Position numbers and translations under genes: made by a program. The notes under the pieces are model-generated. The model made no database searches, had not been told where the DNA came from, and saw only the letters and a list, made by a program, of their open reading frames with translations. Positions 6,446 through 31,488 of a stretch of DNA of 64,000 bases are shown here, piece by piece (the first letter of the stretch is position 1; the number at the start of each line of letters is the position of its first letter). The stretch spans positions 1-64,000 of the forward strand of contig JADYZZ010000082.1 in the NCBI GenBank assembly GCA_020852865.1. Direction: 5' to 3'. Source of the stretch: Rubrivivax sp. GTDB taxonomy: Bacteria > Pseudomonadota > Gammaproteobacteria > Burkholderiales > Burkholderiaceae_C.

Positions 6446-7750
6446 TCAGCGCGCGAAGCTGCGCGACAGCGGCGAGGGCGGCGCGTGCTCGCCCATGAGC
6501 TCGGTCTTGCGCACCTCGGTCCAGTACATCCAGATCAGCGAGACCCAGACCACGCCGTACATCAGCATGAAGGCGCTCGAGCGGATGCCGGTGAGATCCA
6601 TCAGCGCGCCGAACATGATCGGCAGGATGAAGCCGCCCAGGCCGCCGGCCAGGCCGACGATGCCGCTGATGGCGCCGATGTTCTTCGGGTACTCGTCGCT
6701 GATGTACTTGAACACGCTCGCCTTGCCGAAGGCCCAGGCCACGCCGAGCAAGGCCATCAGCGCGGTGAAGGCGTAGACATTGAGGCCGATGTGCAGCGTC
6801 ATCGGACCGTTGACGGTGACGATCGTCATCTGGGTCTGCGGGTACGACAGCAGGAACAGGCAGATCCAGCTCACCCACATCACCCACCAGGTGACCTGGT
6901 GCGCGCCGAAGCGGTCGGACAGCACGCCGCCGATGGCGCGCAGCACGCCGCCGGGCAGCGAGAAGCAGGCCGCGAGCAGCGCCGCGACGCGGATGTCCAG
7001 CCCGTACTCGCCGACGTAGTACTGCACCATCCACAGGCTGAGCGCGACATAGCCGCCGAAGACGATGCTGTAGTACTGGCAGTACTTGAGCACGACCGGG
7101 TCCTTGAGCGCCGCGAGCTGATCGGAGAACTTCGTGTTCGACGGCACCAGGTGCGCCGGGTCGTGGTGGCTGAAGAGCCAGAACAGGATCACCGTGCCGG
7201 CCATGATGGCGGCGTAGACCTGCGGCACCATCGCCCAGCCGAAGGCGACGACGAGCGCCGGGGCGACGAACTTGTTGACCGCGGCGCCCGAGTTGCCGGC
7301 GCCGTACACGCCCATCGCCATGCCCTGGCGCTGGCGCGGGAACCAGCGCGCCACGTAGGGCGTGCCGACCGAAAACGAGCCGCCGGCCAGGCCGACGAAC
7401 AGGCCGATCACGAGGAAATGCCAGTACTGCGTGGCGTAGGACATGAGCCAGATCGCCGGCACCGTGACGGCCATCAGCACGGCCATCACGATGCGCCCGC
7501 CGTACTTGTCGGTCCAGATGCCCAGCGGCACGCGGATCAGCGAGCCGGTGAGCACCGGCGTCGCCGTCAGCAGCCCGAACTCGGTGGCGTTGAGGTTGAG
7601 CGCCTTCTTGATCGGGATGCCGATCACGCCGAACATCATCCAGACCATGAAACAGACCGTGAAGCCGAGCGTGCTGACGATCAGCACGCTCCAGGCCTGG
7701 CGCGAGCGCGTCGAGGCGTCGACGGCGGGCGTGCGCGGGGCGGCAGGCAT
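6446..7750 (-). CDS. narK1: NarK1-type nitrate MFS transporter
   Basis: Major facilitator of 434 residues and the first gene of the nitrate respiration operon. It contains the nitrate-porter motif region GLFVGLAGGSFSVGTPYVAR and a second one, GIVGLAGGLGGFILPIMFG, in twelve hydrophobic segments. It is of a different subfamily from the two following genes and resembles NarK1/NasA-type nitrate/proton symporters. The start ATG 7750 has a strong AGGAGA site 5 bases upstream. No FNR-type palindrome (TTGAT-N4-ATCAA) was found in the 290 bases in front of it, so how the operon senses oxygen is not visible here. Confidence 0.92.
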   Translation of the reverse strand: MPAAPRTPAVDASTRSRQAWSVLIVSTLGFTVCFMVWMMFGVIGIPIKKALNLNATEFGLLTATPVLTGSLIRVPLGIWTDKYGGRIVMAVLMAVTVPAIWLMSYATQYWHFLVIGLFVGLAGGSFSVGTPYVARWFPRQRQGMAMGVYGAGNSGAAVNKFVAPALVVAFGWAMVPQVYAAIMAGTVILFWLFSHHDPAHLVPSNTKFSDQLAALKDPVVLKYCQYYSIVFGGYVALSLWMVQYYVGEYGLDIRVAALLAACFSLPGGVLRAIGGVLSDRFGAHQVTWWVMWVSWICLFLLSYPQTQMTIVTVNGPMTLHIGLNVYAFTALMALLGVAWAFGKASVFKYISDEYPKNIGAISGIVGLAGGLGGFILPIMFGALMDLTGIRSSAFMLMYGVVWVSLIWMYWTEVRKTELMGEHAPPSPLSRSFAR

Positions 7751-7904
7751 CGGTTCTCCTCGTTCGCGGCTTTATGGCACGCCCGCCATCGTGCGCACCG
7801 CCGGCCGCGCCGTACATCCTTCGCCGGCATGCGCCGGCTGCGCCGGACGAACGAGGGCGGCGCATGCGCCCTACTCCCAAAGGACGATGGCGGCCGGCGC
7901 CGAG

Positions 7905-7943
7905 GGCCGGGGCAGATGGCCGGGGCAGATGGCCGGGGCAGAT
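7905..7943. repeat. 13-base tandem repeat, three copies
   Basis: GGCCGGGGCAGAT occurs three times head to tail with no mismatch, followed by a partial fourth copy (GGCCGGA). It lies between the divergent narK1 and DUF2946 genes. Function unknown; it may be slippage DNA in a promoter region. Confidence 0.9.
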
Positions 7944-21146: not shown

Positions 21147-22949
21147 TCAGCGCGGGGCGTCGGGTTGCGCCGCCGCCGGCGCGCGGTGCACGGCGAGGTG
21201 GCGCGGCGTCCAGGCCTGCGGCTTGCGCGCGACGAAATGGTGGCGCGCCACGTGGTAGCTCGGGTCGAAGCCGTAGAAGTTGCGCTGCATGCGCCCGAGT
21301 TCCTCGGCACGGTATTGCGCCAGCGGCTTGACGGCCTCGTCGGCGGCGCGCCGCCGGGCCTTGGCGGCGATGCGCCCGGCGAGCCCCGGTGCCGCGGCCA
21401 GCTCCAGCGCCGCGGCCTGTGCCGCGGCGTCGAACGAGGCCGCCTCGTCGGCCAGGCAGCGGTCGACGAGCCCGAGCGCGCGCGCCTCGTGCACGCCGAT
21501 GGGCAGCCGTCCCTGCATGATGCGGCGGCAGGCGCCGTCGTCGGGCGCGCCGCCCACGCGCCGCGGCAGCAGATAGGTCCAGTACTCGCTGCCGTACAGG
21601 TTTCCCATGTTCTTGTAGTGCGGGTTGAGCACGACGCCGGCGTGCGCCCATACCTCGTCGGCCGCCAGCGCGAGGAAGCAGCCGCCGGCACCGGCGTTGC
21701 CGCGCAGCGCGGCCACCACCAGACGGTCGGTGAGCCCGATCAGCGCCAGCGCCACGTCGTCGATGGCGTTGATGTTGCGCCACGAGGCGTCGGCGGCACT
21801 GTCGTCTTCGGCGTCGGCGGCGGCTTCGATGTCGTGCAGGTGGATGCCGTTGCCGAAAAAGCCCGCGCCGCCGGCGAGCACCAGCAGCCGTGTCGGGCGT
21901 GCGCGCACTTCGTCGAGCGCGGCGCGCAGGCGCTCGCATTGGCGCGTGCTCATCGCGCCGTTGTGGAAGTCGAACTCGAGCCAACCTACGCGAGCGCCGG
22001 CGGGCCCGAGCTCACAGTAGCGCAGCTCGTCCCATTCGTCGTCGGGGTGCTCGAGCGGCACGGCGAGCTCGGGCAGCGCCGCCGCCTCGGCGGCGAAGGC
22101 GCGCGTCGCGGCCAGCTTCAGCTCGGGTCGCCCGGGCGCGGCAGCGCCGGCACGCACATGGCCGATCCACAGCGCCGCGTCACGCGTGCGCACCAGCAGC
22201 GCCGGCCCACGCCGGGCAAGCAGCGCGCCCGGCGCGGCCTGCGACACGGCCGTCAGCACCGCACCCAACGTGGTCGCGCTCACGCGGTGCGCGTCGTACA
22301 GCCGGCAGGCACGCCCGGCGAGCTGCGCCTGCACGCCCGGGGCGCCATCGGCCGAGCGGATGCGGCGCAGCACGGTCTCGGTGTCGTCGCGTGCCCAATC
22401 GACGGCGCGCTCGGCCGCCGTCACCGGCGGCTGCCAGCATCCGCGCCGCGCCGGCAGCTCGGGCGAAGGCATCGGGGCGCTGCAGCCCGGGCGCCAGCGC
22501 GCGAGCGCCGCGCGCACCGCGCGCACGGCGGCGTCGACGACCTCGCGGCGATAGAGATCGCCCTTGCAGGCCTCGCGCATCGTGAAGGGCGACCAGGCCC
22601 AGACCGGGCCGGCATCGAGCTCGCCCGTGGCCTGCAGCACGGTGACGCCCCAGTCGCGCTCGCCGGCGAGGATGGCGTGGTCGAGCGCCGAGGGTCCGCC
22701 GTCGCCGGGCGGCCCCGGGTGCACGACCAGGCACAGATGCCGGCTCCACACGCTCTCGGGAATGCGCCGCTTCATGAAGGGCGCGAGCACGAGGTCGGGC
22801 CGCGCCAGCGTCACCGCCTCCTCGGTGACGGCGTCGGCGATGTCGAACTCCACCGTCACCTCGTGGCCCCATTCGCGCAGCTCGACGTGCAGCCGCTGCG
22901 CCAGGCTGTTGAACAGGTGCGTGAGCAGCAGGATCTTCACGCCTGCCAC
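21147..22949 (-). CDS. hoxX: Hydrogenase maturation factor HoxX
   Basis: About 600 residues in two halves. The N-terminal half (to about 280) is like formyl-tetrahydrofolate transferases/hydrolases (LLLTHLFNSLAQRLHVELRE at the start, VHPGPPGDGGPSALD), and the C-terminal half is an enoyl-CoA hydratase-like fold (AGGAGFFGNGIHLHDIEA, NAGAGGCFLALAADEVW). HoxX makes the active-site CO ligand of [NiFe]-hydrogenases from formyl groups under aerobic conditions. The frame begins at GTG 22949; a GTG three codons later (22940) fits the family start better. It is the last gene of the maturation operon, 202 bases after hypE. Confidence 0.93.
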   Translation of the reverse strand: MAGVKILLLTHLFNSLAQRLHVELREWGHEVTVEFDIADAVTEEAVTLARPDLVLAPFMKRRIPESVWSRHLCLVVHPGPPGDGGPSALDHAILAGERDWGVTVLQATGELDAGPVWAWSPFTMREACKGDLYRREVVDAAVRAVRAALARWRPGCSAPMPSPELPARRGCWQPPVTAAERAVDWARDDTETVLRRIRSADGAPGVQAQLAGRACRLYDAHRVSATTLGAVLTAVSQAAPGALLARRGPALLVRTRDAALWIGHVRAGAAAPGRPELKLAATRAFAAEAAALPELAVPLEHPDDEWDELRYCELGPAGARVGWLEFDFHNGAMSTRQCERLRAALDEVRARPTRLLVLAGGAGFFGNGIHLHDIEAAADAEDDSAADASWRNINAIDDVALALIGLTDRLVVAALRGNAGAGGCFLALAADEVWAHAGVVLNPHYKNMGNLYGSEYWTYLLPRRVGGAPDDGACRRIMQGRLPIGVHEARALGLVDRCLADEAASFDAAAQAAALELAAAPGLAGRIAAKARRRAADEAVKPLAQYRAEELGRMQRNFYGFDPSYHVARHHFVARKPQAWTPRHLAVHRAPAAAQPDAPR

Positions 22950-23151: not shown

Positions 23152-24225
23152 TCAACATATCCGCGGCAGCTGCTCGCCGCTCAGCCAGTCGACGACGCGC
23201 TGGCCGCCGAAGCGTGTGGCCATCTGCACGAAGCGGTGCGCATCGGCCACCACTTCGCCGATGCACGCGGCGTCGGCGCCGAGCGCATGTGCGCGCATCG
23301 CGGCAAGCACGGCGTCGGCGGCCTCGGGCGCGACGGCGGCGACGAGCTTGCCTTCGTTGGCGACGTACAGTGGGTCGAGCCCGAGCAGTTCGCAGGCGGC
23401 GTCGACCTGAGGCTTGACCGGGATCGCGGCTTCGACCAGGCGCATGCCGACGCCGCTCTGGCGCGCGATCTCGTTGAGCGTGGTCGCCAGGCCGCCGCGC
23501 GTGGGGTCGCGCAGCACATGCACCGCGCCCGGCGGCGCGGCGGCGAGCATCGTCGCCACCAGACCGTGCAGCGCGGCGCTGTCGCTTTCGATCGTGGTCT
23601 CGAACTCGAGCGACTCACGCCTGGACAGCACCGCGACGCCGTGGTCGCCGATGGTGCCCGAGAGCAGCAGCCGGTCGCCCGGCCTGGCCCTGGCGCCGCC
23701 GACGCCGCCGGCGCGTATCAGCGCCGCGCTCACCACGCCGACGCCGGTGGTGGCGATGAAGACGCCGTCGCCCTTGCCTTGCTCGACGACCTTGGTGTCG
23801 CCGGTGACCACCGGCACGCCGGCCGCGCGCGAGGCCGCGGCCATCGACGCGACGACGCGCCGCAGATCGGCCAGCGCGTAGCCCTCCTCGATGATGAAGC
23901 TGGCGGCCAGATACAGCGGCCGCGCGCCCAGCATCGCGACGTCGTTGACCGTGCCGTGCACCGCGAGCGAGCCGAGGTCGCCGCCGGGGAAGAAGATCGG
24001 CGTCACGACATGGCCGTCACAACTCATCACCAGGCGTCCGCCCTCCATCAGCTCGGGCACCGACGCGAGCAGCGCGCCGTCGTCGCCCTGGCGCAGGAAC
24101 TCGTTGTCGAAGGCCGGCGCGAACAGCTCCTCGATCAGCTGCGCCGCGGCGCGTCCGCCGGCGCCGTGGTTGAGGTCGACGCGACCGTGCCGGAAGTCGA
24201 TCGGGCGCAGGTAGTCCTTCTTCAT
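23152..24225 (-). CDS. hypE: Hydrogenase maturation protein HypE, carbamoyl dehydratase
   Basis: 357 residues. HypE turns a carbamoyl group on its C-terminal Cys into a thiocyanate, the source of the active-site CN ligands. The chain ends in LPRIC, with Cys357 as the carrier. ATP-binding PurM-like parts are visible: LNHGAGGRAAAQLI near the start, GDDGALLASVPEL, and LRDPTRGGLATTLNEIA. It starts at ATG 24225, whose ATGA overlaps the hypD stop codon, indicating translational coupling. Partners are HypF (carbamoyl donor) and HypCD. Confidence 0.97.
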   Translation of the reverse strand: MKKDYLRPIDFRHGRVDLNHGAGGRAAAQLIEELFAPAFDNEFLRQGDDGALLASVPELMEGGRLVMSCDGHVVTPIFFPGGDLGSLAVHGTVNDVAMLGARPLYLAASFIIEEGYALADLRRVVASMAAASRAAGVPVVTGDTKVVEQGKGDGVFIATTGVGVVSAALIRAGGVGGARARPGDRLLLSGTIGDHGVAVLSRRESLEFETTIESDSAALHGLVATMLAAAPPGAVHVLRDPTRGGLATTLNEIARQSGVGMRLVEAAIPVKPQVDAACELLGLDPLYVANEGKLVAAVAPEAADAVLAAMRAHALGADAACIGEVVADAHRFVQMATRFGGQRVVDWLSGEQLPRIC

Positions 24226-25397
24226 GCCGACTCCGCGGCGGGTACGGCCTGCGCGTCGGGGTTCGCGTCGCGTCCGGCGTCGCGAAAACGCCCATAGCTG
24301 TAGTGCGCCGCGCAGGCGCCTTCGCTGCTGACCATGCACGAGCCCATCGGATGCTCCGGCGTGCACACGGTGCCGAAGAGCTTGCAATCGGCCGGCTGCC
24401 TCATGCCGCGCAGGATGGCGCCGCATTCGCATTGCTTGTGATCGGGCACCGGCCGGTAGACCAGGCCGAAGCGTCGCTCGGCGTCGAAGCGCGCCCAGGC
24501 CGGGCGGATCTTCAGCGCGCTGTACGGCACCTCGCCCAGGCCGCGCCACTCGAACGACGAGCGCAGCTCGAACACCTCGGCCACCACCTTCTGCGCCGCC
24601 AGGTTGCCCGCGCGCGTGACGGCGCGGCTGAATTCGTTCTCCACCTCGGCGCGGCCCTCGTTGACCTGGCGCACCAGCATCAGGATGGCCTGCATCACGT
24701 CCAGCGGCTCGAAGCCGGCGATCACCACCGGCTTGCCGTACTCCTGGGCGAAATGCTCGTAGGGCTGGCTGCCGATGACGATGCTCACGTGCGCCGGGCC
24801 GACGAAGCCGTCGATCGGCACCGTGCCCCAGGCGCGCACCTCGGCGGCCTCGAGGATGTGCGTGATGGCGCTCGGCGTGAGCACATGGCAGCACAGGACG
24901 CTGAAGTTGGCGAGGTCCTGCCGCGCTGCGGCCTGGATCGCGAGCGCGGTCGGCGGCGTGGTGGTCTCGAAGCCGATGGCGAAAAAGACGACTTCGCGCG
25001 CCGGCTGGGCGGCGGCGATCTTCAGCGCATCGGCGGCCGAGTAGACCATGCGGATGTCGCCGCCGCGCGCTTTGGCCTTCAGCAGGCTGAGGCCCTGCGA
25101 AGCGGGCACGCGCATCGTGTCGCCGTAGGTGCAGACGATGGCGCCGCGCTCGAGCGCCAGGCCGATCGCGAGGTCGATGCGGCCGATCGGCAGCACGCAC
25201 ACCGGGCAGCCCGGGCCGTGGATCATGTGCAGCGCCGGCGGCAGCAGCTCGGCAATGCCGTAGCGCGAGATGGCGTGCGTGTGGCCGCCGCAGAACTCCA
25301 TGAAGCGGTACTGCCGGCCGGGCTGCACCTCGGCCGCGATGCGCGCCGCGATGCCGCGCGCGAGCGTGCCGTCTCGGAACTCGTCGACGTACTTCAA
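24222..25397 (-). CDS. hypD: Hydrogenase Fe(CN)2CO assembly scaffold HypD
   Basis: 391 residues, carrying a [4Fe-4S] cluster and, with HypC, the Fe(CN)2CO unit. Motifs: FMEFCGGHTH (Cys36), GPGCPVCVLP (Cys64, Cys67), GFETTTPPTA, and the C-terminal cluster-binding Cys set ECGAILRG, GTVCTPEHPMGSCMVSSEGA. The only sensible start is a TTG at 25397 (LKYVDEFRDG), which overlaps the hypC stop codon as TTGA; no in-frame ATG or GTG exists between that stop and the conserved N-terminus. Its 3' end overlaps hypE. Confidence 0.96.
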   Translation of the reverse strand: MKYVDEFRDGTLARGIAARIAAEVQPGRQYRFMEFCGGHTHAISRYGIAELLPPALHMIHGPGCPVCVLPIGRIDLAIGLALERGAIVCTYGDTMRVPASQGLSLLKAKARGGDIRMVYSAADALKIAAAQPAREVVFFAIGFETTTPPTALAIQAAARQDLANFSVLCCHVLTPSAITHILEAAEVRAWGTVPIDGFVGPAHVSIVIGSQPYEHFAQEYGKPVVIAGFEPLDVMQAILMLVRQVNEGRAEVENEFSRAVTRAGNLAAQKVVAEVFELRSSFEWRGLGEVPYSALKIRPAWARFDAERRFGLVYRPVPDHKQCECGAILRGMRQPADCKLFGTVCTPEHPMGSCMVSSEGACAAHYSYGRFRDAGRDANPDAQAVPAAESA

Positions 25398-25642
25398 GCC
25401 GACGCCTCCCGCGCCGTCTCCTGCTCGGCCGCGGCGAGTTCGGCGAACAGCGCCAGCGTGCGCTCGGCCTCGTCGGCGTCGAGCAGGCCGATGGCATGGC
25501 CGACATGCACGATGACGTAGTCGCCGATCCGCGCCTCGGGCACGAGGGCGAGCGAGACGCTCTTGCGCACGCCGGCCAGATCGACCAGCGCCTCGTCGTC
25601 GCCGCGACGTTCGACCAGGCGCGCGGGAATGGCTAGACACAT
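25394..25642 (-). CDS. hypC: Hydrogenase maturation chaperone HypC
   Basis: 82 residues beginning MCLAIPARLVE. Cys2, exposed after removal of Met1, binds the iron and the large-subunit precursor. The body GDYVIVHVGHAIGLLDADEA is typical of HypC/HybG. It overlaps the end of hypF by 10 bases and the TTG start of hypD by 2, as expected in a coupled hypFCD unit. Confidence 0.96.
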   Translation of the reverse strand: MCLAIPARLVERRGDDEALVDLAGVRKSVSLALVPEARIGDYVIVHVGHAIGLLDADEAERTLALFAELAAAEQETAREASA

Positions 25643-26766
25643 GCAGCACCCTCCTCGATCGGCGCCGGTGCTTCGGCCAGCCGCCGTTCCGCCACCCAGG
25701 CCTGGCCGAGCGCAAGACCGGCGTCGCCGCAGTTCACGCTCTGCGGCAGCAGGACCTCGAGGCCGCGCCGCTCGAGCAGCGTGCGCAGGCGCTGGGCGAG
25801 CAGGCGGTTGAAAAAGCAGCCGCCGGCGAGCACCACCTGCCCGACGCCGGCGGCGGCCGCGGCGTCGCCGGCGGCGCGCGCCAGCGCCTCGGCCAGCACG
25901 GCGTGGAACAGCGCCGCGCCCTCGCCTGCCTGCTGCGCGGCGCCGAGTTCGGCCAGGCGCGCGAACAGCGGCCGCAGGTCGATGCGGGCGCCGGCGTCGC
26001 GCGGCACGAGCGCATCGTATGCAGGCAGTTCGTGGCCTTGCAGCCAGCGCGTGGCGGCCTGCTCGAGCGCCTGCGCCGCCTCGGCCTCCTGCGCCTGGCG
26101 CAAGCCGAGGCCGAGGATGCCGGCCGCCGCGTCGAACCAGCGCCCGGCGCTCGTGGTGGGCGGACAGTGCAGACCGCGCGCGAGCATCTGCGCCACGCCG
26201 CGCGCCGGCGCCTCGCCTGCGGCCGGGCCCAGGCGCGGCGCGATCTCGTCGCCGCGGCCCAGCGCATGCAAGGCGGCGGCCGCCATCCGCCAGGGCTCGC
26301 GCGCGGCCCGGTCGCCGCCGGGCAGCGCCAGCGGCCACAAGTGCGCCAGGCGCTCGCAGCCGGCGCCTTGCACGCGCAGCAGCTCGCCGCCCCAGGCCGT
26401 GCCGTCGCGGCCCAGCCCGACGCCGTCGAGCGCCAGGCCGATGACCGGGCCCGCGAGCGCGCGCTCGGCGGCGACGACGGCGACATGGGCATGGTGGTGC
26501 TGCACGCCGAACGCGGGCACACCGAGCCTGGCCGCCAGCGCCCCCGCGACGCGCGTGCTGTGGAAATCGGGGTGCAGGTCGTGCGCCAGCGCATCGACGC
26601 GGCCGCCGGCCGAGTGCAGCAGCGCCTCGGCCGAAGCCTCGAGCGCCGCACAGGCCGTGGGCGTGCCGAGGTCGCCGTGCAGCGCCGACCACTGCACGCT
26701 GGCGTCCGCGCGCCGCAGGCAGGCGGCGTTCTTCAGGTACGCACCGAGCGCGAGGATCGTGGCCAT
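25633..26766 (-). CDS. hypF: Short-form HypF, carbamoyltransferase domain only
   Basis: 377 residues. Full HypF (about 750) has acylphosphatase, zinc-finger, YrdC and Kae1-like domains in that order. This protein begins exactly at the last one (LALGAYLKNAACLRRA) and keeps its metal motif VQHHHAHVAVVAAE, the ATP-site strand VIGLALDGVGLGRDGTAWGG, and LAGGCFFNRLLAQRL and NCGDAGLALGQAW. It resembles the short HypF1 of Cupriavidus necator, reported to be functional. The gene starts 3 bases after hypB and ends inside hypC, so it is not an accidental truncation in this cluster. Where the carbamoyl-adenylate comes from if no long HypF is encoded elsewhere is an open question. Confidence 0.93.
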   Translation of the reverse strand: MATILALGAYLKNAACLRRADASVQWSALHGDLGTPTACAALEASAEALLHSAGGRVDALAHDLHPDFHSTRVAGALAARLGVPAFGVQHHHAHVAVVAAERALAGPVIGLALDGVGLGRDGTAWGGELLRVQGAGCERLAHLWPLALPGGDRAAREPWRMAAAALHALGRGDEIAPRLGPAAGEAPARGVAQMLARGLHCPPTTSAGRWFDAAAGILGLGLRQAQEAEAAQALEQAATRWLQGHELPAYDALVPRDAGARIDLRPLFARLAELGAAQQAGEGAALFHAVLAEALARAAGDAAAAAGVGQVVLAGGCFFNRLLAQRLRTLLERRGLEVLLPQSVNCGDAGLALGQAWVAERRLAEAPAPIEEGAACV

Positions 26767-26769
26767 GAC

Positions 26770-27978
26770 TCAGCTGTGCCGGCTCGCCTCGACGCCCATG
26801 CGGGCCGCCGCGAGCGCCGCCTCGAGCTCCTCGATGCGCCGGCGCAGCGCGGCCTCGGTGGCAGCCGCTTCGGGCGACACCGTGCCCGGCGCTGCCTTGG
26901 CCGGCACGCCGCCATGGTGCGCGGTCTGGTGCGCGGCCTCGAGGATCCAGTCGAGCCAGGCGTCCAGGCCCTGGCCGCTGCGCGCCGAGACCAGCAGCAC
27001 CTCGATCGCCGGATTGACGCGGCGCGCGTATTCGATGCAGCGGGCCACGTCGAAGTCCACGTACGGCAGCAGGTCGACCTTGTGCAGCACCATCGCCCGC
27101 GCGGCGGCGAACATGTCGGGGTACTTGAGCGGCTTGTCCTCGCCTTCGGTCACCGACAGGATCACCACCTTGGCCGCCTCGCCCAGGTCCCACAGCGCCG
27201 GACAGACGAGGTTGCCGACGTTCTCGATGAACAGCAGCGCCGCCGGGTCGTGGTGGTGATGGCCCTGGCCGTGCTCGTGCGCGAGGCCTTGCGCGTGCGC
27301 CCGGTCGTGCGCCTGGCCCTGCATGCGGCCCTGAGCATGCGTGTGCGCGTGCGCATGGCCGTGCCCGTGATCAAGCCCATGGTCGTGCTCGTGGGGACCA
27401 TGCCCATGCGCGTGCTCGTGCGCGTGGCCATGCGCGTGCGCGTGTTCATGCGGATGCGGATGCGCATGCCCGTGGCCGTCGCCCGGCCCGTGCTCGTGCC
27501 CGTGCAGCGGCAGCCGCGCGAAGGCGGCGGCCACCATCGGCGCGTCGAGGTGGCAGCCCTTGCCGGTGTTGACCTGGATCGCCGGGGCGCCGGTGGCGCG
27601 GATGCGATCGGCATCGTTGCTGGTCTGCTGGTCGCCCTCGATCACGGCCACCGCCGTCGCCGGCGTGCGCCGACGCAGCGCCTCGATCGTCGCCGCCAGC
27701 AGCGTCGTCTTGCCCGAGCCGGGGCTGGAGACCAGGTTGAGTGCGGTCACGCCGTGGGCCAGGAAATGCGCGCGGTTGGCCGCGGCCTGGCGGTTGTTCT
27801 CGCCCAGCACGTCGGCCTCGAGCCGGATCGCGCGCTCGGCGCTCATGCCCGGCACCGACACGCGCGCCGCGCCGGCGCCGAAATGCAGATCGCCGGTACC
27901 CGGCGCCACCACCGGCGCCTCGCCCGCGACGCCGCCGGGCGCGCCTTCGGGTTGACCACAGCCGCAGACCACGCACAT
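26770..27978 (-). CDS. hypB: Hydrogenase nickel GTPase HypB with an internal His-rich insertion
   Basis: 402 residues; E. coli HypB has 290. HypB delivers nickel to the hydrogenase large subunit with HypA. The N-terminus MCVVCGCG carries the high-affinity Ni site (Cys2, Cys5, Cys7). The P-loop is SSPGSGKTT (84-92); EGDQQTSND follows; the G-domain metal ligands are Cys142-His143 (KGCHLD) and Cys259 (NLVCP). Residues about 159-243 are an insertion with roughly 33 His, mostly as HG/HA/HE pairs, placed between [15 protein letters not shown] and [13 protein letters not shown], that is, inside the GTPase fold near the metal site. Other His-rich HypB proteins carry such stretches at the N-terminus. 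A predicted coiled-coil tail ([15 protein letters not shown]) closes the protein. It overlaps nothing and leads into hypF after 3 bases. Confidence 0.96.
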
Positions 27979-28000: not shown

Positions 28001-28348
28001 CTATGCGTCGTGCACGATCAGCTCGCGCACTTTCAGTTCGGTGCCGCCGTTGGGCATCAGCTGGTGGCGGCCGCAGCGCGGGCAGGGGTCGACGCGCGAG
28101 GCGATCGGCACCGTTTCGCTGCAGGCCATGCACCAGGCGCTGCCCGGCGGTTCGTCGATCTCGATCGTCGCCCCTTCGAGCACGGTGCCCGGCGCGATCG
28201 CCTCGAGCGCGAAGCGCAGCGCGCGCACCTCGACGCCGGCGAGCACGCCTGCTTCGAGCGCCAGACACCGCACGCGCCCGAAGCGCTCGCGCGCCGCCGC
28301 GTCCTCGACGATACGCAGGATGCCGCCGGCCAGGCTCATCTCGTGCAT
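28001..28348 (-). CDS. hypA: Hydrogenase nickel chaperone HypA
   Basis: 115 residues beginning [13 protein letters not shown], in which His2 belongs to the nickel site. A structural zinc site is formed by CMAC (about 73-76) and CPRC (about 90-93). HypA accepts nickel from HypB and docks on the large subunit. The start overlaps the end of hoxV by 13 bases; hypB begins 22 bases downstream. Confidence 0.96.
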
Positions 28349-29457
28349 GGGCGCGCCGCCACGTCGAATTCGATGCAGGGATCGAGCGCCACCGCCGCCA
28401 GGCGCGCCTGCGCTTCGTCGAGCCGCTGCGCGCGCAGCGCCGCACCCAGGGCGCCGTCGGGGTGGAAGTTCCACTCGGTCGGCGCCAGCACGCGGTACGT
28501 CTCGGCGCGCGCCGCGTCGCGCGAGCGCGCTCCCGGCTCGAGGCGCACCCAGTGCACGAGCAGCCCGCGCGACATCTCGCTCCAGGCGATGCCCTCGCCC
28601 GGCTGCAGCTGCAGCGCGCCGTAGCCCAGCCGCGCGCCGAGCGCGATGCGCGCCAGGTCGGCCAGACGCGCGCCCAGGCGCTCCCAGGGCGTGGCCGGCG
28701 CCAGCGCGTGGCCGCGGCGCGTCCAGGGGCCGGTCTCGGCCGGCGCGCCATGCCAGCAGGGCCGCTCGGCGAAGTCGGCTTCGCCGGCCAGCGTCGCGCC
28801 CAGGCCGCGCAGACCGACCTCGCCTTCGTCGAGCAGGCCGAGCGGCCGGCAAGGCAGGGCGATCGCGCGCGCCGGCGCCGCTGCGGCCGCCAGCCAGCGC
28901 GCCACCGGATGCGCGCGGCCCTCGCACCACTGCTGCAGCCAGCCGGCCGGATCGGCCTGCCAGCTCTCGAGCCAGCGCGCCGCCGGCATGCCGAGCAGCC
29001 TGCGCTCGAGCCACGACGGCATGCCCGCCTGCACGTCGTCGAGCGCCAGGTCGCTCGGGCCTGGCCCCTGCGCCGGCAGCGCCAGCACGGGCGCGTCGCG
29101 CAGCCAGGCGGTGTCGGGCGCCGCGCCGGGCAGCGGCGCGCGCGCGGGCACGTCGAGCGCCAGGCGCTGCAGATGCTCGCGCGCGGTGTACAGCGCGAGC
29201 ATGCAGCCGTCGTGCGTGCGTGCGCGCGCGTCGTCGTGCGCACCCAGCGCGGCGCGCACCGCACGACGCGCGGTGGCGCGCTGCGCCGTGCCGCCGAGCG
29301 TGAAGACGGTGGCGATCAGATCGGGCAGCAGGTTCGCGCGCCGCCCGGCCGTGAGGCGGTGCATCAGCGCGGCGCGGACCATCGGGCGCTCGCAGATGAT
29401 CGGCGGCACGGCGCCGGGGCGCAGCGTGAGGCGGCCGACGAGCGCGTCGCCCGACAT
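28336..29457 (-). CDS. hoxV: Hydrogenase assembly protein HoxV/HupK
   Basis: 373 residues of the HupK/HoxV family, thought to be a scaffold that carries the Fe(CN)2CO unit to the large subunit. The C-terminal region resembles the large subunit: RVLAPTEWNFHPDGALGAAL and VALDPCIEFDV, where the second Cys of the DPCxxC motif is missing, as in the family. The start ATG 29457 touches the hoxT stop codon (TGATG), and the end overlaps hypA. Confidence 0.88.
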   Translation of the reverse strand: MSGDALVGRLTLRPGAVPPIICERPMVRAALMHRLTAGRRANLLPDLIATVFTLGGTAQRATARRAVRAALGAHDDARARTHDGCMLALYTAREHLQRLALDVPARAPLPGAAPDTAWLRDAPVLALPAQGPGPSDLALDDVQAGMPSWLERRLLGMPAARWLESWQADPAGWLQQWCEGRAHPVARWLAAAAAPARAIALPCRPLGLLDEGEVGLRGLGATLAGEADFAERPCWHGAPAETGPWTRRGHALAPATPWERLGARLADLARIALGARLGYGALQLQPGEGIAWSEMSRGLLVHWVRLEPGARSRDAARAETYRVLAPTEWNFHPDGALGAALRAQRLDEAQARLAAVALDPCIEFDVAARPCTR

Positions 29458-29999
29458 CAGGCCTCCCGAGCGAAGCCGGCGCTGCGGCCCAGCAGCAGCG
29501 CGCGCCGCGCCGGCTCGGGTGCCGGTCCGGGCGGCGTCGCGGGCCCGGGCGGCGGCCGGCGCAGCTCGGCCAGCACCGCCTGCGCCGTGGCCACCGCGGC
29601 GGCCTGGTCGACAAAGGCCGACATCGGCGAGAACAGCGAGCAGATCTCGTACGCGCCCAAGCCCGGGTCGTGCGCGCCGATGAAGTCGAGCCGCTCGCAG
29701 CCCACGGTGCGCGCGCAGCTGCGCCCGGGCAGCGCCATCGACGCGTCGGCCGCCAGCGGCAGGCGCACGAGGTTCATGAACCAGGGCGTGAGCAGCACTC
29801 CCCAGGCGCAGCGGCCGTCGGCCTCGGGCTCGAAGCCCTCGGCATGCACGGCCAGGCCCGCATGCAGCAGCGGCAGCCCCGCCATGCGTGTGCGCGCCAC
29901 ATGCTCGAACAGCGCGCACAGCGCCGCCACGCGGGCGCGCAGCGCGGCCGTGGCCGCCGTACCGTCAGCCACGCGTGATGGGGCGGCCGTCCCGTTCAT
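29457..29999 (-). CDS. hoxT: Hydrogenase assembly chaperone HoxT/HupJ (HybE family)
   Basis: 180 residues. The family signature LLTPWFMNLVRLPL and the GAHDPGLGAYEICSLFSPMSAF block are clear. In related operons this protein is found next to a rubredoxin (HoxR), sometimes fused to it, and protects or binds the small-subunit precursor. No rubredoxin gene is present: hoxO ends only 24 bases upstream. It is followed directly by hoxV. Confidence 0.88.
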   Translation of the reverse strand: MNGTAAPSRVADGTAATAALRARVAALCALFEHVARTRMAGLPLLHAGLAVHAEGFEPEADGRCAWGVLLTPWFMNLVRLPLAADASMALPGRSCARTVGCERLDFIGAHDPGLGAYEICSLFSPMSAFVDQAAAVATAQAVLAELRRPPPGPATPPGPAPEPARRALLLGRSAGFAREA

Positions 30000-30023
30000 C
30001 CTGCCTGGCTCGCTGCGCGCGAC

Positions 30024-30458
30024 TCAACCGCAGGCGCCGTTGCCGCCCGCAGCGACGACGGGAATCCCCACCGTCGGCGCGCGTGCGGCGGACGCGGCGA
30101 GCACCTGCGCCACCTCCTGCCGGTAGACGTCCCAGTCCTTCATGCCGCTGATCGCGCCCAGGTACCGGCCGTCGCGCAGGAAGACGAGCGAGGGCCAGCG
30201 CTGCACGCCCCAGCGCCGCGCCAGCGCCTCCTCGTCCTCGCGCGGCACGACGCCGATGGCGAAGCGCCCGCCGAACGCGGCGTGCAATTCCGGCAGCACG
30301 ACGGCGACGTCCAGCCCCTCGGCAAAGCGCACCGGGTCGCCGGCGAAGAACAGCACCTGCTCGCCGCCTTGCGCCAGCCAGGCGTCGAGCGTGTCGACCG
30401 TGACGGCCGCGGCGCCATGCTGCCGGAGCAGCCGCTCGACCAGCGGATGGAGTTTCAT
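30024..30458 (-). CDS. hoxO: Thioredoxin-like hydrogenase small-subunit chaperone HoxO/HupG (HyaE family)
   Basis: 144 residues with a thioredoxin-like fold lacking the CxxC active site: VLFFAGDPVRFAEGLDVAVV and RWGVQRWPSLVFLRDGRYLG. The HyaE/HoxO family binds the twin-arginine signal of the hydrogenase small subunit before export. Its ATG overlaps the hoxL stop codon (ATGA). Its presence implies a Tat-exported uptake hydrogenase somewhere in the genome. Confidence 0.9.
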   Translation of the reverse strand: MKLHPLVERLLRQHGAAAVTVDTLDAWLAQGGEQVLFFAGDPVRFAEGLDVAVVLPELHAAFGGRFAIGVVPREDEEALARRWGVQRWPSLVFLRDGRYLGAISGMKDWDVYRQEVAQVLAASAARAPTVGIPVVAAGGNGACG

Positions 30459-30796
30459 CGTCGGTCTCCGGGTTCGCGCTGCGGCGCGGGCTTGCCGTTG
30501 AGCGCGGCCAGTTGCTCGGCCGTCATCGCCGACGGCAAGGTGAATCCGGGGTCGGCGCCAGCGGCCGCGTAGTCGCCCGCCAGGCCCGCCTCGAGCAAGT
30601 CGAGAGCGGCGTCGATCTCGGCCGCGCGCCGCGCGTCGAGCAACTCGCGCGCAGCGCCCTGAAACACGAGCAGCCAGTCGCCGCACGCGCAGTCGCCGAC
30701 GAGCCGCGTATCGACCGTCTCGCTGCGCCCGCGACCCTGCACCAGCGCCTGCCCGGACCAGGCTTCGATGATCCGCATGGGAAACCCGATGCACAT
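30455..30796 (-). CDS. hoxL: HypC-like hydrogenase chaperone HoxL/HupF
   Basis: 113 residues beginning MCIGFPMRIIEAWSGQALVQ. Cys2 corresponds to that of HypC, and CGDWLLVFQGAARELLDARR is the family core; the C-terminal 30 residues exceed HypC. HoxL is a dedicated HypC paralogue of membrane-bound, oxygen-tolerant hydrogenases that brings the iron unit to the large subunit. It starts 5 bases after hoxM. Confidence 0.92.
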   Translation of the reverse strand: MCIGFPMRIIEAWSGQALVQGRGRSETVDTRLVGDCACGDWLLVFQGAARELLDARRAAEIDAALDLLEAGLAGDYAAAGADPGFTLPSAMTAEQLAALNGKPAPQREPGDRR

Positions 30797-30801
30797 GAGA
30801 T

Positions 30802-31488
30802 TCACCTCGACGTACTCGACAAGCCCGCGAGGAAGCGCACATCGCCGACGCGGCAGGCCTGGCCCGCGTCGGGCCGGCCGTCCTCGTAGGCGGCGAGCGC
30901 GAGCACCGGCGCGGTGAGAGCCTCCCCGGGCGCCGGCGGCGTGCCGCGCACGCGCGGCGCCGCACCCCAGGCGGCGAGCCGCTCGACGGCCAGCGCGACG
31001 GCGGGCGCAAGTGCGGCCCGGGTGCACGCGCGCAGGCTGCCGCCGTAGTCGTCGAGCACTTCGGGCTGGCAGCCGATTAGCAGCACCTCGCGCGGATAGC
31101 ACTCGGTCAGTTGCGCCAGCATCAGCACTTCCTGGAAGCCGGTCTGGTGCAGGCTCATCTTCTTGGCGCCGAGGAAGCGCGGCACCTCGTCGTTCTCCAC
31201 CAGGCGGATCGTGCCCGGCGCGAGGCCGTAGTCGACGGCGTCGAGGATCAACAGGCGCGTCGCCTGCTGCACCAGCGGCAGCAGGTACAGGCCCTGCGTG
31301 CCGCCGTCGACGAGCTGCACCTGCGGCGCGAAGTCCCAGCCCGCCTGCAGCGCCTCGACGGCGCGCACGCCGAAGCCCTCGTCGGCCCAGAGCAGGTTGC
31401 CGATGCCGAGCACGACGATGCGCTCGCCATCGGCCGGCAGGCCCGTCTTGTAACCCCCGGAGTTACGCGTGGAATCGGGTTGGGGCAT
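30802..31488 (-). CDS. hoxM: Hydrogenase maturation endopeptidase HoxM/HupD
   Basis: 228 residues. This protease removes the C-terminal peptide of the large subunit once nickel is in place. Nickel-sensing ligands by comparison with HybD are Glu37 (LGIGNLLWADEGFGVRAVE), Asp83 (LLILDAVDYG) and His114 (KKMSLHQTGFQE); the spacings of 46 and 31 residues match HybD exactly. The N-terminal 22 residues and about 40 C-terminal residues are extra. A GAGG site precedes the ATG. It is the first clear gene of the maturation operon; a HigA-like gene ends 24 bases upstream on the same strand. Confidence 0.94.
   Translation of the reverse strand: MPQPDSTRNSGGYKTGLPADGERIVVLGIGNLLWADEGFGVRAVEALQAGWDFAPQVQLVDGGTQGLYLLPLVQQATRLLILDAVDYGLAPGTIRLVENDEVPRFLGAKKMSLHQTGFQEVLMLAQLTECYPREVLLIGCQPEVLDDYGGSLRACTRAALAPAVALAVERLAAWGAAPRVRGTPPAPGEALTAPVLALAAYEDGRPDAGQACRVGDVRFLAGLSSTSR

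What the first reader, a model, noticed from the sequence alone, without database searches (positions are those of the whole stretch)
27245..27505. His-rich metal-store segment inserted inside the HypB GTPase domain
HypB residues about 159-243 hold roughly 33 His in HG/HA/HE pairs. The insertion separates the LDAPMV helix from [13 protein letters not shown], so it sits beside the G-domain metal site (Cys142-His143, Cys259). In known His-rich HypB proteins the stretch is N-terminal. Here the N-terminus instead keeps the CxxCGC high-affinity site. One protein would thus combine both nickel sites with a large buffer placed where nucleotide state could alter it. The placement is read directly; the role in storage is inference.
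Basis: partly seen in the sequence, partly recalled or inferred. Interest (0 to 1): 0.75.

Follow-up and report, generated by a model that had tools for sequence, protein, structure and literature searches.

The report
HypB with internal histidine-rich loop
A helper protein that loads nickel into hydrogenase carries its histidine-rich, probably nickel-holding stretch in the middle of its GTP-binding domain instead of at its front end, a placement shared by a lineage of related bacteria rather than unique to this genome.

Summary
In detail: the 402-aa HypB at 26770-27978 (-) holds 33 His in residues 159-243, between [17 protein letters not shown] and [13 protein letters not shown]. It is not unique. 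The CHLDA-to-IENVGN interval is 23-25 aa in 119 of 123 readable loci outside the window's family, but 26-108 aa and usually His-rich in 59 of 83 inside it, and 60 aa in Cupriavidus necator H16 HypB. Insert-bearing proteins cluster on the tree (3 changes against 61 shuffled; one clade not rejected), have fewer N-terminal His (median 3 against 14) and keep His codons better than spacers. Best reading: the known HypB nickel buffer, moved to a surface loop. No passage that I read after nine paper searches describes the internal position, but the original HypB papers were not readable. The window has the longest interval measured (108 aa), one residue over an incomplete Rhodoferax gene.

The parts
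26770..27978 (-). hypB, 402 aa nickel-insertion GTPase
   Evidence: ORF; TIGR00073 264.8 bits (cut-off 121.2); PF02492; one search matches 4LPS, 2HF8, 2WSM
27250..27504 (-). His-rich insert, residues 159-243, 33 His of 85, HxHx pattern
   Evidence: one search count; 23-aa baseline interval elsewhere; tandem-repeat DNA
27958..27975 (-). N-terminal CVVCGC (residues 2-7), counterpart of the CxxCGC site
   Evidence: C2, C5, G6, C7 at least 90% conserved; that it is the high-affinity Ni site is recalled from E. coli work
27703..27729 (-). P-loop, residues 84-92 SSPGSGKTT
   Evidence: invariant S84 P86 G87 G89 K90 T91
27550..27555 (-). C142-H143 of the G-domain metal motif, start of the stretch (presumed helix) that ends at the insert
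   Evidence: invariant; helix is inferred
27202..27204 (-). C259, second part of the G-domain metal motif
   Evidence: invariant
28001..28345 (-). hypA, 114 aa
   Evidence: TIGR00100 80.1 bits, just under its cut-off of 88.1
25633..26766 (-). short hypF: only the C-terminal part of the profile (392-739 of 741)
   Evidence: TIGR00143 218.1 bits, below its cut-off of 466.1
25394..25636 (-). hypC
   Evidence: PF01455
24222..25373 (-). hypD (start approximate)
   Evidence: PF01924, on a piece that begins inside the gene
23152..24219 (-). hypE (start approximate)
   Evidence: PF00586/PF02769; the name is by these domains and operon position
21147..22949 (-). hypX-like protein: formyl transferase plus enoyl-CoA hydratase parts
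   Evidence: PF00551 (below its cut-off)/PF02911/PF00378; the name hypX is recalled
28336..31488 (-). upstream maturation genes: weakly hydrogenase-large-subunit-like protein (HoxV/HupK type), HybE, HyaE, HypC-like, HyaD-type protease
   Evidence: PF00374 in the first is below its cut-off; the HoxV name is by operon position in annotated relatives

Best explanation
The segment is the HypB nickel buffer, relocated. In an ancestor of one Burkholderiales HypB lineage, a short His-containing sequence was inserted or grew in the loop between the helix that follows CHLDA and the strand LLFIEN of the G domain; it then expanded and contracted by repeat slippage. The disordered HxHx loop would bind several Ni(II) (and other divalent) ions weakly through imidazoles and feed them to the sites that do the insertion (CxxCGC, then C142/H143/C259 and HypA). 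It largely took over from the N-terminal His stretch of other HypB. Shown here: the position, the clustering in one lineage, the His enrichment, the relative constraint on His codons, and the lower N-terminal His content. Inferred: metal binding, disorder, hand-over, and the order of events.
For: Position and count. Outside the family the interval is 23 aa in 27 of 28 order loci (the 28 best-matching loci fetched, of 160 genomes with any match; L004 is the exception) and 23-25 aa in 92 of 95 readable class and phylum loci (97 fetched; 97 and 84 genomes were over the cut-off). Family: 59 of 83 readable loci inserted, median interval 44 aa, median 12 His in it (the His of CHLDA counted), 50 of 59 with 8 or more. 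Trade-off: N-terminal His median 3 (137 inserted) against 14 (126 not); Spearman -0.44 among the inserted, not corrected for kinship. Tree: 3 changes against 61.2 shuffled; one clade of inserted rows not rejected, p-AU 0.83. Selection: pN/pS 0.23 at His codons (95% 0.14-0.35) against 0.47 at spacers (0.33-0.67) in 10 pairs (105 and 158 codons), core 0.15. His two residues after His: 0.71 against a base of 0.41. By analogy: the N-terminal His HypB of B. japonicum binds 9 Ni per monomer and that of R. leguminosarum 4 (PMC7055735, passages); C. metallidurans CobW2, a related GTPase with a large internal His-rich region, binds about 7 Zn(II) in one conformation and is proposed as a zinc store (PMC11340326, section 16).
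Against: No metal-binding data for any HypB with an internal insert. A same-genus relative, G719, has an insert of only 3 aa, with 2 His in the interval (one of them that of CHLDA) and 1 N-terminal, so a His store is dispensable for some. Independent-pairs tests of the trade-off, at several thresholds (output partly cut), are not significant in any that I could read: the strongest has about 3 of 6 pairs opposite and 0.1 the same way, median p 0.25; with N-terminal His of 8 or more the median p is 1. The pN/pS pairs were chosen for equal insert length, at least 60% insert identity and 80% core identity. Several proteins are His-rich at both places (L045, L063, L070, L198).
Confidence: 0.62

Rival explanations
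1. Nucleotide-gated buffer: because it sits inside the G domain next to the metal motif, GTP or GDP state changes the loop and so releases or takes up nickel.
For: Sequence adjacency to C142-H143 and C259; H. pylori HypB couples nucleotide and nickel ligation (PMC7055735, passage); CobW2 with an internal His region is reported in two conformations with 0.5 or about 7 Zn (PMC11340326).
Against: Fold topology (inference): the loop ends at the N-terminal end of the strand LLFIEN, whereas nucleotide, switch and metal loops follow the C-terminal ends of strands, so the anchors lie about a 14-residue helix (roughly 20 A) away. Insert length runs from 3 to 85 aa, unlike a coupled element. Binding to the His-rich regions of CobW2 and CobW3 is said not to be controlled directly by MgGTP.
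Confidence: 0.12
2. Nearly neutral repeat expansion in a tolerant surface loop; His content is a by-product of slippage of CAC/CAT-rich units.
For: Degenerate tandem arrays; insert length differs greatly inside one genus: 3, 69 and 85 aa in G719, G486 and the window.
Against: His codons are mixed (CAC 1091, CAT 592) and more constrained than spacers; 50 of 59 family inserts have 8 or more His in the interval; His alternates with varied spacers.
Confidence: 0.15
3. A docking or sink element rather than a store for hydrogenase: the loop binds a partner (HypA, SlyD) or soaks up excess nickel or zinc for detoxification.
For: The host also codes a UreE-like protein with a His-rich C-terminus, so His-rich tails are not special to hydrogenase in it; His-rich HypB of B. 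japonicum and R. leguminosarum also take other metals such as Zn, Cu and Co (PMC7055735).
Against: I see no shared non-His sequence in the loops that a partner could read (by eye); the gene lies in a hyp operon.
Confidence: 0.11

Closest known systems
HypB of Cupriavidus necator H16 (WP_011153938.1, pHG1)
   Same: Same family, similar operon, His-rich insert at the same site: 60-aa interval with 16 His, 9 His in the 106 aa before the P-loop
   Different: Insert about 37 aa against 85 in the window
His-rich HypB of Bradyrhizobium japonicum and Rhizobium leguminosarum (N-terminal stretch)
   Same: HypB GTPase with a His stretch; reported to bind 9 and 4 Ni per monomer (PMC7055735, passages)
   Different: Stretch is N-terminal there, internal here; their positions are taken from the paper, not aligned here
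CobW2 of Cupriavidus metallidurans (COG0523)
   Same: GTPase of the same G3E family with a large internal His-rich region, proposed zinc store (PMC11340326, section 16)
   Different: Different subfamily, zinc rather than nickel; exact place of its His region not compared
UreE with a C-terminal His tail (UreE-like protein in the same genome, contig C55)
   Same: Nickel accessory protein with an HxHx tail (named by the neighbouring urease gene and recall, no profile match run)
   Different: Other protein family and place
HypB of Escherichia coli
   Same: PRK10463-type HypB (profile match); CxxCGC and operon neighbours recalled
   Different: No His stretch (PMC2770081, passage)

Membership tests
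HypB (hydrogenase nickel-incorporation GTPase) | Family profile over its curated cut-off | tested here: met
   TIGR00073 264.8 bits against 121.2; PRK10463 349.9 is below its own 385, its match also coming in two stretches
HypB (hydrogenase nickel-incorporation GTPase) | P-loop, CHLDA and [10 protein letters not shown] motifs with invariant C-H...C | tested here: met
HypB (hydrogenase nickel-incorporation GTPase) | In a hyp gene cluster | tested here: met
   hypA, hypF, hypC, hypD, hypE around it
HypB (hydrogenase nickel-incorporation GTPase) | GTP hydrolysis and nickel insertion | not testable with these tools
   needs the protein
His-rich HypB with N-terminal stretch (B. japonicum type) | His stretch in the N-terminal region | tested here: not met
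   3 His in the 86 residues before the P-loop; it may work like one, it does not have that architecture
His-rich HypB with N-terminal stretch (B. japonicum type) | Several Ni(II) bound per monomer | not testable with these tools
   needs the protein
Internal-insert HypB lineage of Burkholderiales (defined in this report) | CHLDA-to-IENVGN interval over 25 aa and a place among the inserted rows of the tree | tested here: met
   108 aa; inside a 34-row all-inserted starred set
COG0523/CobW2-like GTPases | GCxCC metal motif | tested here: not met
   read directly: no GCxCC in the 402 residues (sequence); motif as named in PMC2770081 and PMC11340326

The most novel reading that the evidence does not exclude
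The insert makes HypB a self-loading machine: nickel parked on the internal loop is released or taken up in step with GTP binding and hydrolysis and dimerisation, and this coupling is why the stretch moved from the N-terminus into the G domain in this lineage, much as CobW2 is said to switch between low- and high-zinc forms.
Probability: 0.1. Interest if true: 0.72.

Novelty: new variant of a known kind. Interest (0 to 1): 0.36.

Why it matters
The role of His stretches in HypB has stayed at 'suggested storage' (PMC7055735). A lineage in which the stretch sits at another place in the protein, with natural insert lengths from 3 to 85 residues and a laboratory member (C. necator H16), gives a natural series to test whether the stretch is only a local nickel reservoir (position should not matter) or part of the GTPase cycle (it should). 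It also warns against reading HypB as 'not His-rich' from its N-terminus alone.

Tried and rejected
Uniqueness of the window: rejected. Sequencing error or frameshift: rejected, frame open and relatives alike. Several independent gains: the trees need 3 changes and their starred branches force at least 2, yet holding all 79 inserted rows as one clade is not rejected and gave a higher likelihood than the free search (p-AU 0.83); so I claim neither two losses (L005, L091) with a return to N-terminal His, although the free trees draw two uninserted rows inside the group, nor a proven single origin. Metformin/guanidine nickel enzymes as the context of the Pseudomonas copies: rejected for two loci, L304 and L166, where I recognised by eye, without a profile search, hydrogenase-type ORFs a few kb from hypB. 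Trade-off between the two His places by independent pairs: too few pairs to decide. Five of 119 pattern hits (L114, L127, L158, L209, L212) were chance, not HypB.

Literature: (9 of 10 searches). Passages read: PMC11247825, PMC7055735, PMC12134894, PMC2770081 (12 of 16 places shown), PMC4257681, PMC11340326 (69, and its section 16 whole). None of these describes an internal His stretch in HypB; of the other papers listed I saw only listings and starts of abstracts. The original papers on the B. japonicum and R. leguminosarum proteins are not held, and none on the first description of C. necator hypB was found or read, so earlier notice cannot be excluded.

Of 127 plasmid records with a match I read 5, all from the best 7. 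L107 (Rhodoferax, 107 aa, 39 His) and other genes cut at either end were dropped from the 263-protein set; that set mixes unbiased samples with hits selected for the insert, so its proportions are not prevalences. His counts in intervals include the His of CHLDA. Phyla other than Pseudomonadota were seen only through the pattern scan.

Full report
What is there. The minus-strand ORF 26770-27978 codes a 402-aa HypB: TIGR00073 at 264.8 bits over a cut-off of 121.2, PF02492, and matches to the solved HypB 4LPS, 2HF8 and 2WSM. HMMER breaks these three matches at the same point: the first stretch ends at query residue 150-157 and the second begins at 244-247. Residues 159-243 (27250-27504) hold 33 His of 85; the rest of the protein holds 9. 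The G-domain metal residues C142, H143 and C259 are invariant, and the N-terminal C2, C5 and C7 at least 90% conserved, in an alignment of 63 HypB and in its 60-row subset. The DNA is a degenerate tandem array with 6-, 12-, 18- and 30-base periods.

Is it unusual? I measured, in every HypB that my script could extract, the interval from the C of CHLDA to the start of the IENVGN motif (baseline 23 aa). Outside the window's family, 27 of 28 order loci have 23 aa (L005-L031; the exception is L004 with 38); these are the 28 best-matching loci fetched, where 160 of 399 genomes had some match, many of them weak and not read. In class and phylum samples 97 loci were fetched (97 and 84 genomes were over the cut-off); 92 of the 95 readable ones have 23-25 aa, and the three exceptions are two incomplete genes at contig ends (L284, L285) and one locus close to a Pseudomonas one (L287, 95% core identity to L166). 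Inside the family, 86 loci from 85 of the 89 matching genomes gave 83 readable genes: 59 with an insert (interval 26-108 aa, median 44, median 12 His) and 24 without; N-terminal His are 3 and 18.5 in the median. Five plasmid records that I read of 127 with a match carry it too: C. necator H16 60 aa with 16 His, Paraburkholderia aromaticivorans 54/17, Acidovorax temperans 35/11, Variovorax paradoxus 31/6, C. taiwanensis 37/4. The window's 108 aa is the longest interval found, one residue more than an incomplete Rhodoferax protein with 39 His (L107); L202 has 36 His in 95 aa, against 34 in the window's interval.

Origin. On a tree of 192 HypB cores with the interval left out, 79 insert-bearing rows need 3 changes of state against 61 in shuffles; starred branches force at least 2. 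That tree puts two uninserted rows with long N-terminal His stretches (L005, L091) inside the group. In a 100-row tree a single clean clade is not rejected (p-AU 0.83, and a higher likelihood than the free search), so losses are not shown and one origin is the simplest reading, though not proven. The three Pseudomonas rows in the tree group with C. necator H16; by eye, L304 and L166 show hydrogenase-type ORFs a few kb from hypB, consistent with transfer of the operon. The window protein is nearest to Rubrivivax gelatinosus DSM 1709, which shares 87% of its core, and to same-genus genomes; G486 of its genus has a 69-aa insert, G719 one of 3 aa with 2 His in the interval.

Is the His content kept by selection? 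In 10 pairs with inserts of equal length, pN/pS is 0.23 at His codons (bootstrap over pairs 0.14-0.35), 0.47 at spacer codons (0.33-0.67) and 0.15 in the conserved core; His is lower than spacer in 98.8% of resamplings. The probability of His two residues after a His is 0.71 against a base of 0.41, and both His codons are used (CAC 1091, CAT 592). This favours a kept metal ligand array over neutral slippage, with the caution that pairs were picked for alignable, similar inserts.

How it probably works. N-terminal His HypB of B. japonicum and R. leguminosarum bind 9 and 4 Ni(II) per monomer, and a role in storage has been suggested (PMC7055735, passages). HypB with the internal insert mostly lack that stretch: median 3 N-terminal His in 137 inserted against 14 in 126 others, 31 of 137 against 88 of 126 with 8 or more, and Spearman -0.44 within the inserted; tests by independent pairs are too small to decide. 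The simplest account is a relocated buffer. In the related GTPase CobW2 of C. metallidurans a large internal His-rich region goes with about 7 Zn(II) in one conformation and a proposed store, and binding to such regions was said not to be controlled directly by MgGTP (PMC11340326, section 16).

Is it beside the metal site? In sequence yes. In the P-loop fold (general knowledge, not computed here) nucleotide, switch and metal loops follow the C-terminal ends of the strands; this insert lies between a presumed helix that starts at C142-H143 and runs about 14 residues away, and the N-terminal end of the strand that leads to C259. Its anchors should then be on the opposite face, roughly 20 A off, although an 85-residue loop could reach back.

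Context. The gene lies in an accessory cluster HyaD-type protease, HypC-like, HyaE, HybE, HoxV-like, hypA, hypB, short hypF, hypC, hypD, hypE, hypX-like, similar to the annotated relatives. The full-length hydrogenase large subunit of this genome is on another contig (C54), and the genome has a urease with a His-tailed UreE-like protein.

Verdict. A real placement shared by a lineage, not described in what I could read, of a known kind of element. The window is its longest example so far measured. Interest is moderate; the bold reading, a buffer gated by the GTPase cycle, is open but has little behind it.

Noticed in passing
window 26770-26930 and relatives: A C-terminal tail with a coiled-coil-like heptad motif ([15 protein letters not shown] in the window) is commoner in insert-bearing HypB: 72 of 137 against 16 of 126 by a crude motif.
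   Followed up: partly
G000:C54:163155-164741 (L330): The full-length [NiFe]-hydrogenase large subunit, with ORFs that look by eye like the small subunit and cytochrome b next to it, lies on another contig than the hyp cluster; in two annotated relatives structural and hyp genes lie together.
   Followed up: partly
window 29999-30024; G000:C54:242125-242796: HyaE and HybE lie about 25 bases apart, with no HoxQ/HyaF-type or rubredoxin gene between them, where four annotated relatives have an 'expression/formation protein' and a rubredoxin next to HybE. A HupH_C domain protein lies on C54; a rubredoxin gene elsewhere was not sought.
   Followed up: partly
G000:C55 (L331, about 7300-7930): UreE-like protein with a His-rich C-terminal tail beside a urease gene; it is what the weak second hit points at.
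   Followed up: partly
whole genome G000 (95.7% complete): No HupE/UreJ-type nickel permease found at E 0.001; the nickel importer of this genome is not identified.
   Followed up: no
L130, L166, L186, L201, L287/L304: Pseudomonas HypB (L287/L304 by similarity to L166) carry the same internal insert; the three in the tree group with C. necator H16, suggesting transfer of the hydrogenase operon.
   Followed up: partly
window 25633-26766: HypF is short (377 aa) and matches only the last half of the HypF profile (392-739 of 741); two annotated relatives show a HypF of about 391-394 aa.
   Followed up: no
L069 (G719, same genus): HypB with almost no His at either place (2 in the interval, 1 N-terminal): a natural store-less control. 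Three other same-genus genomes listed (G583, G656, G777) have no HypB match at 1e-20.
   Followed up: no
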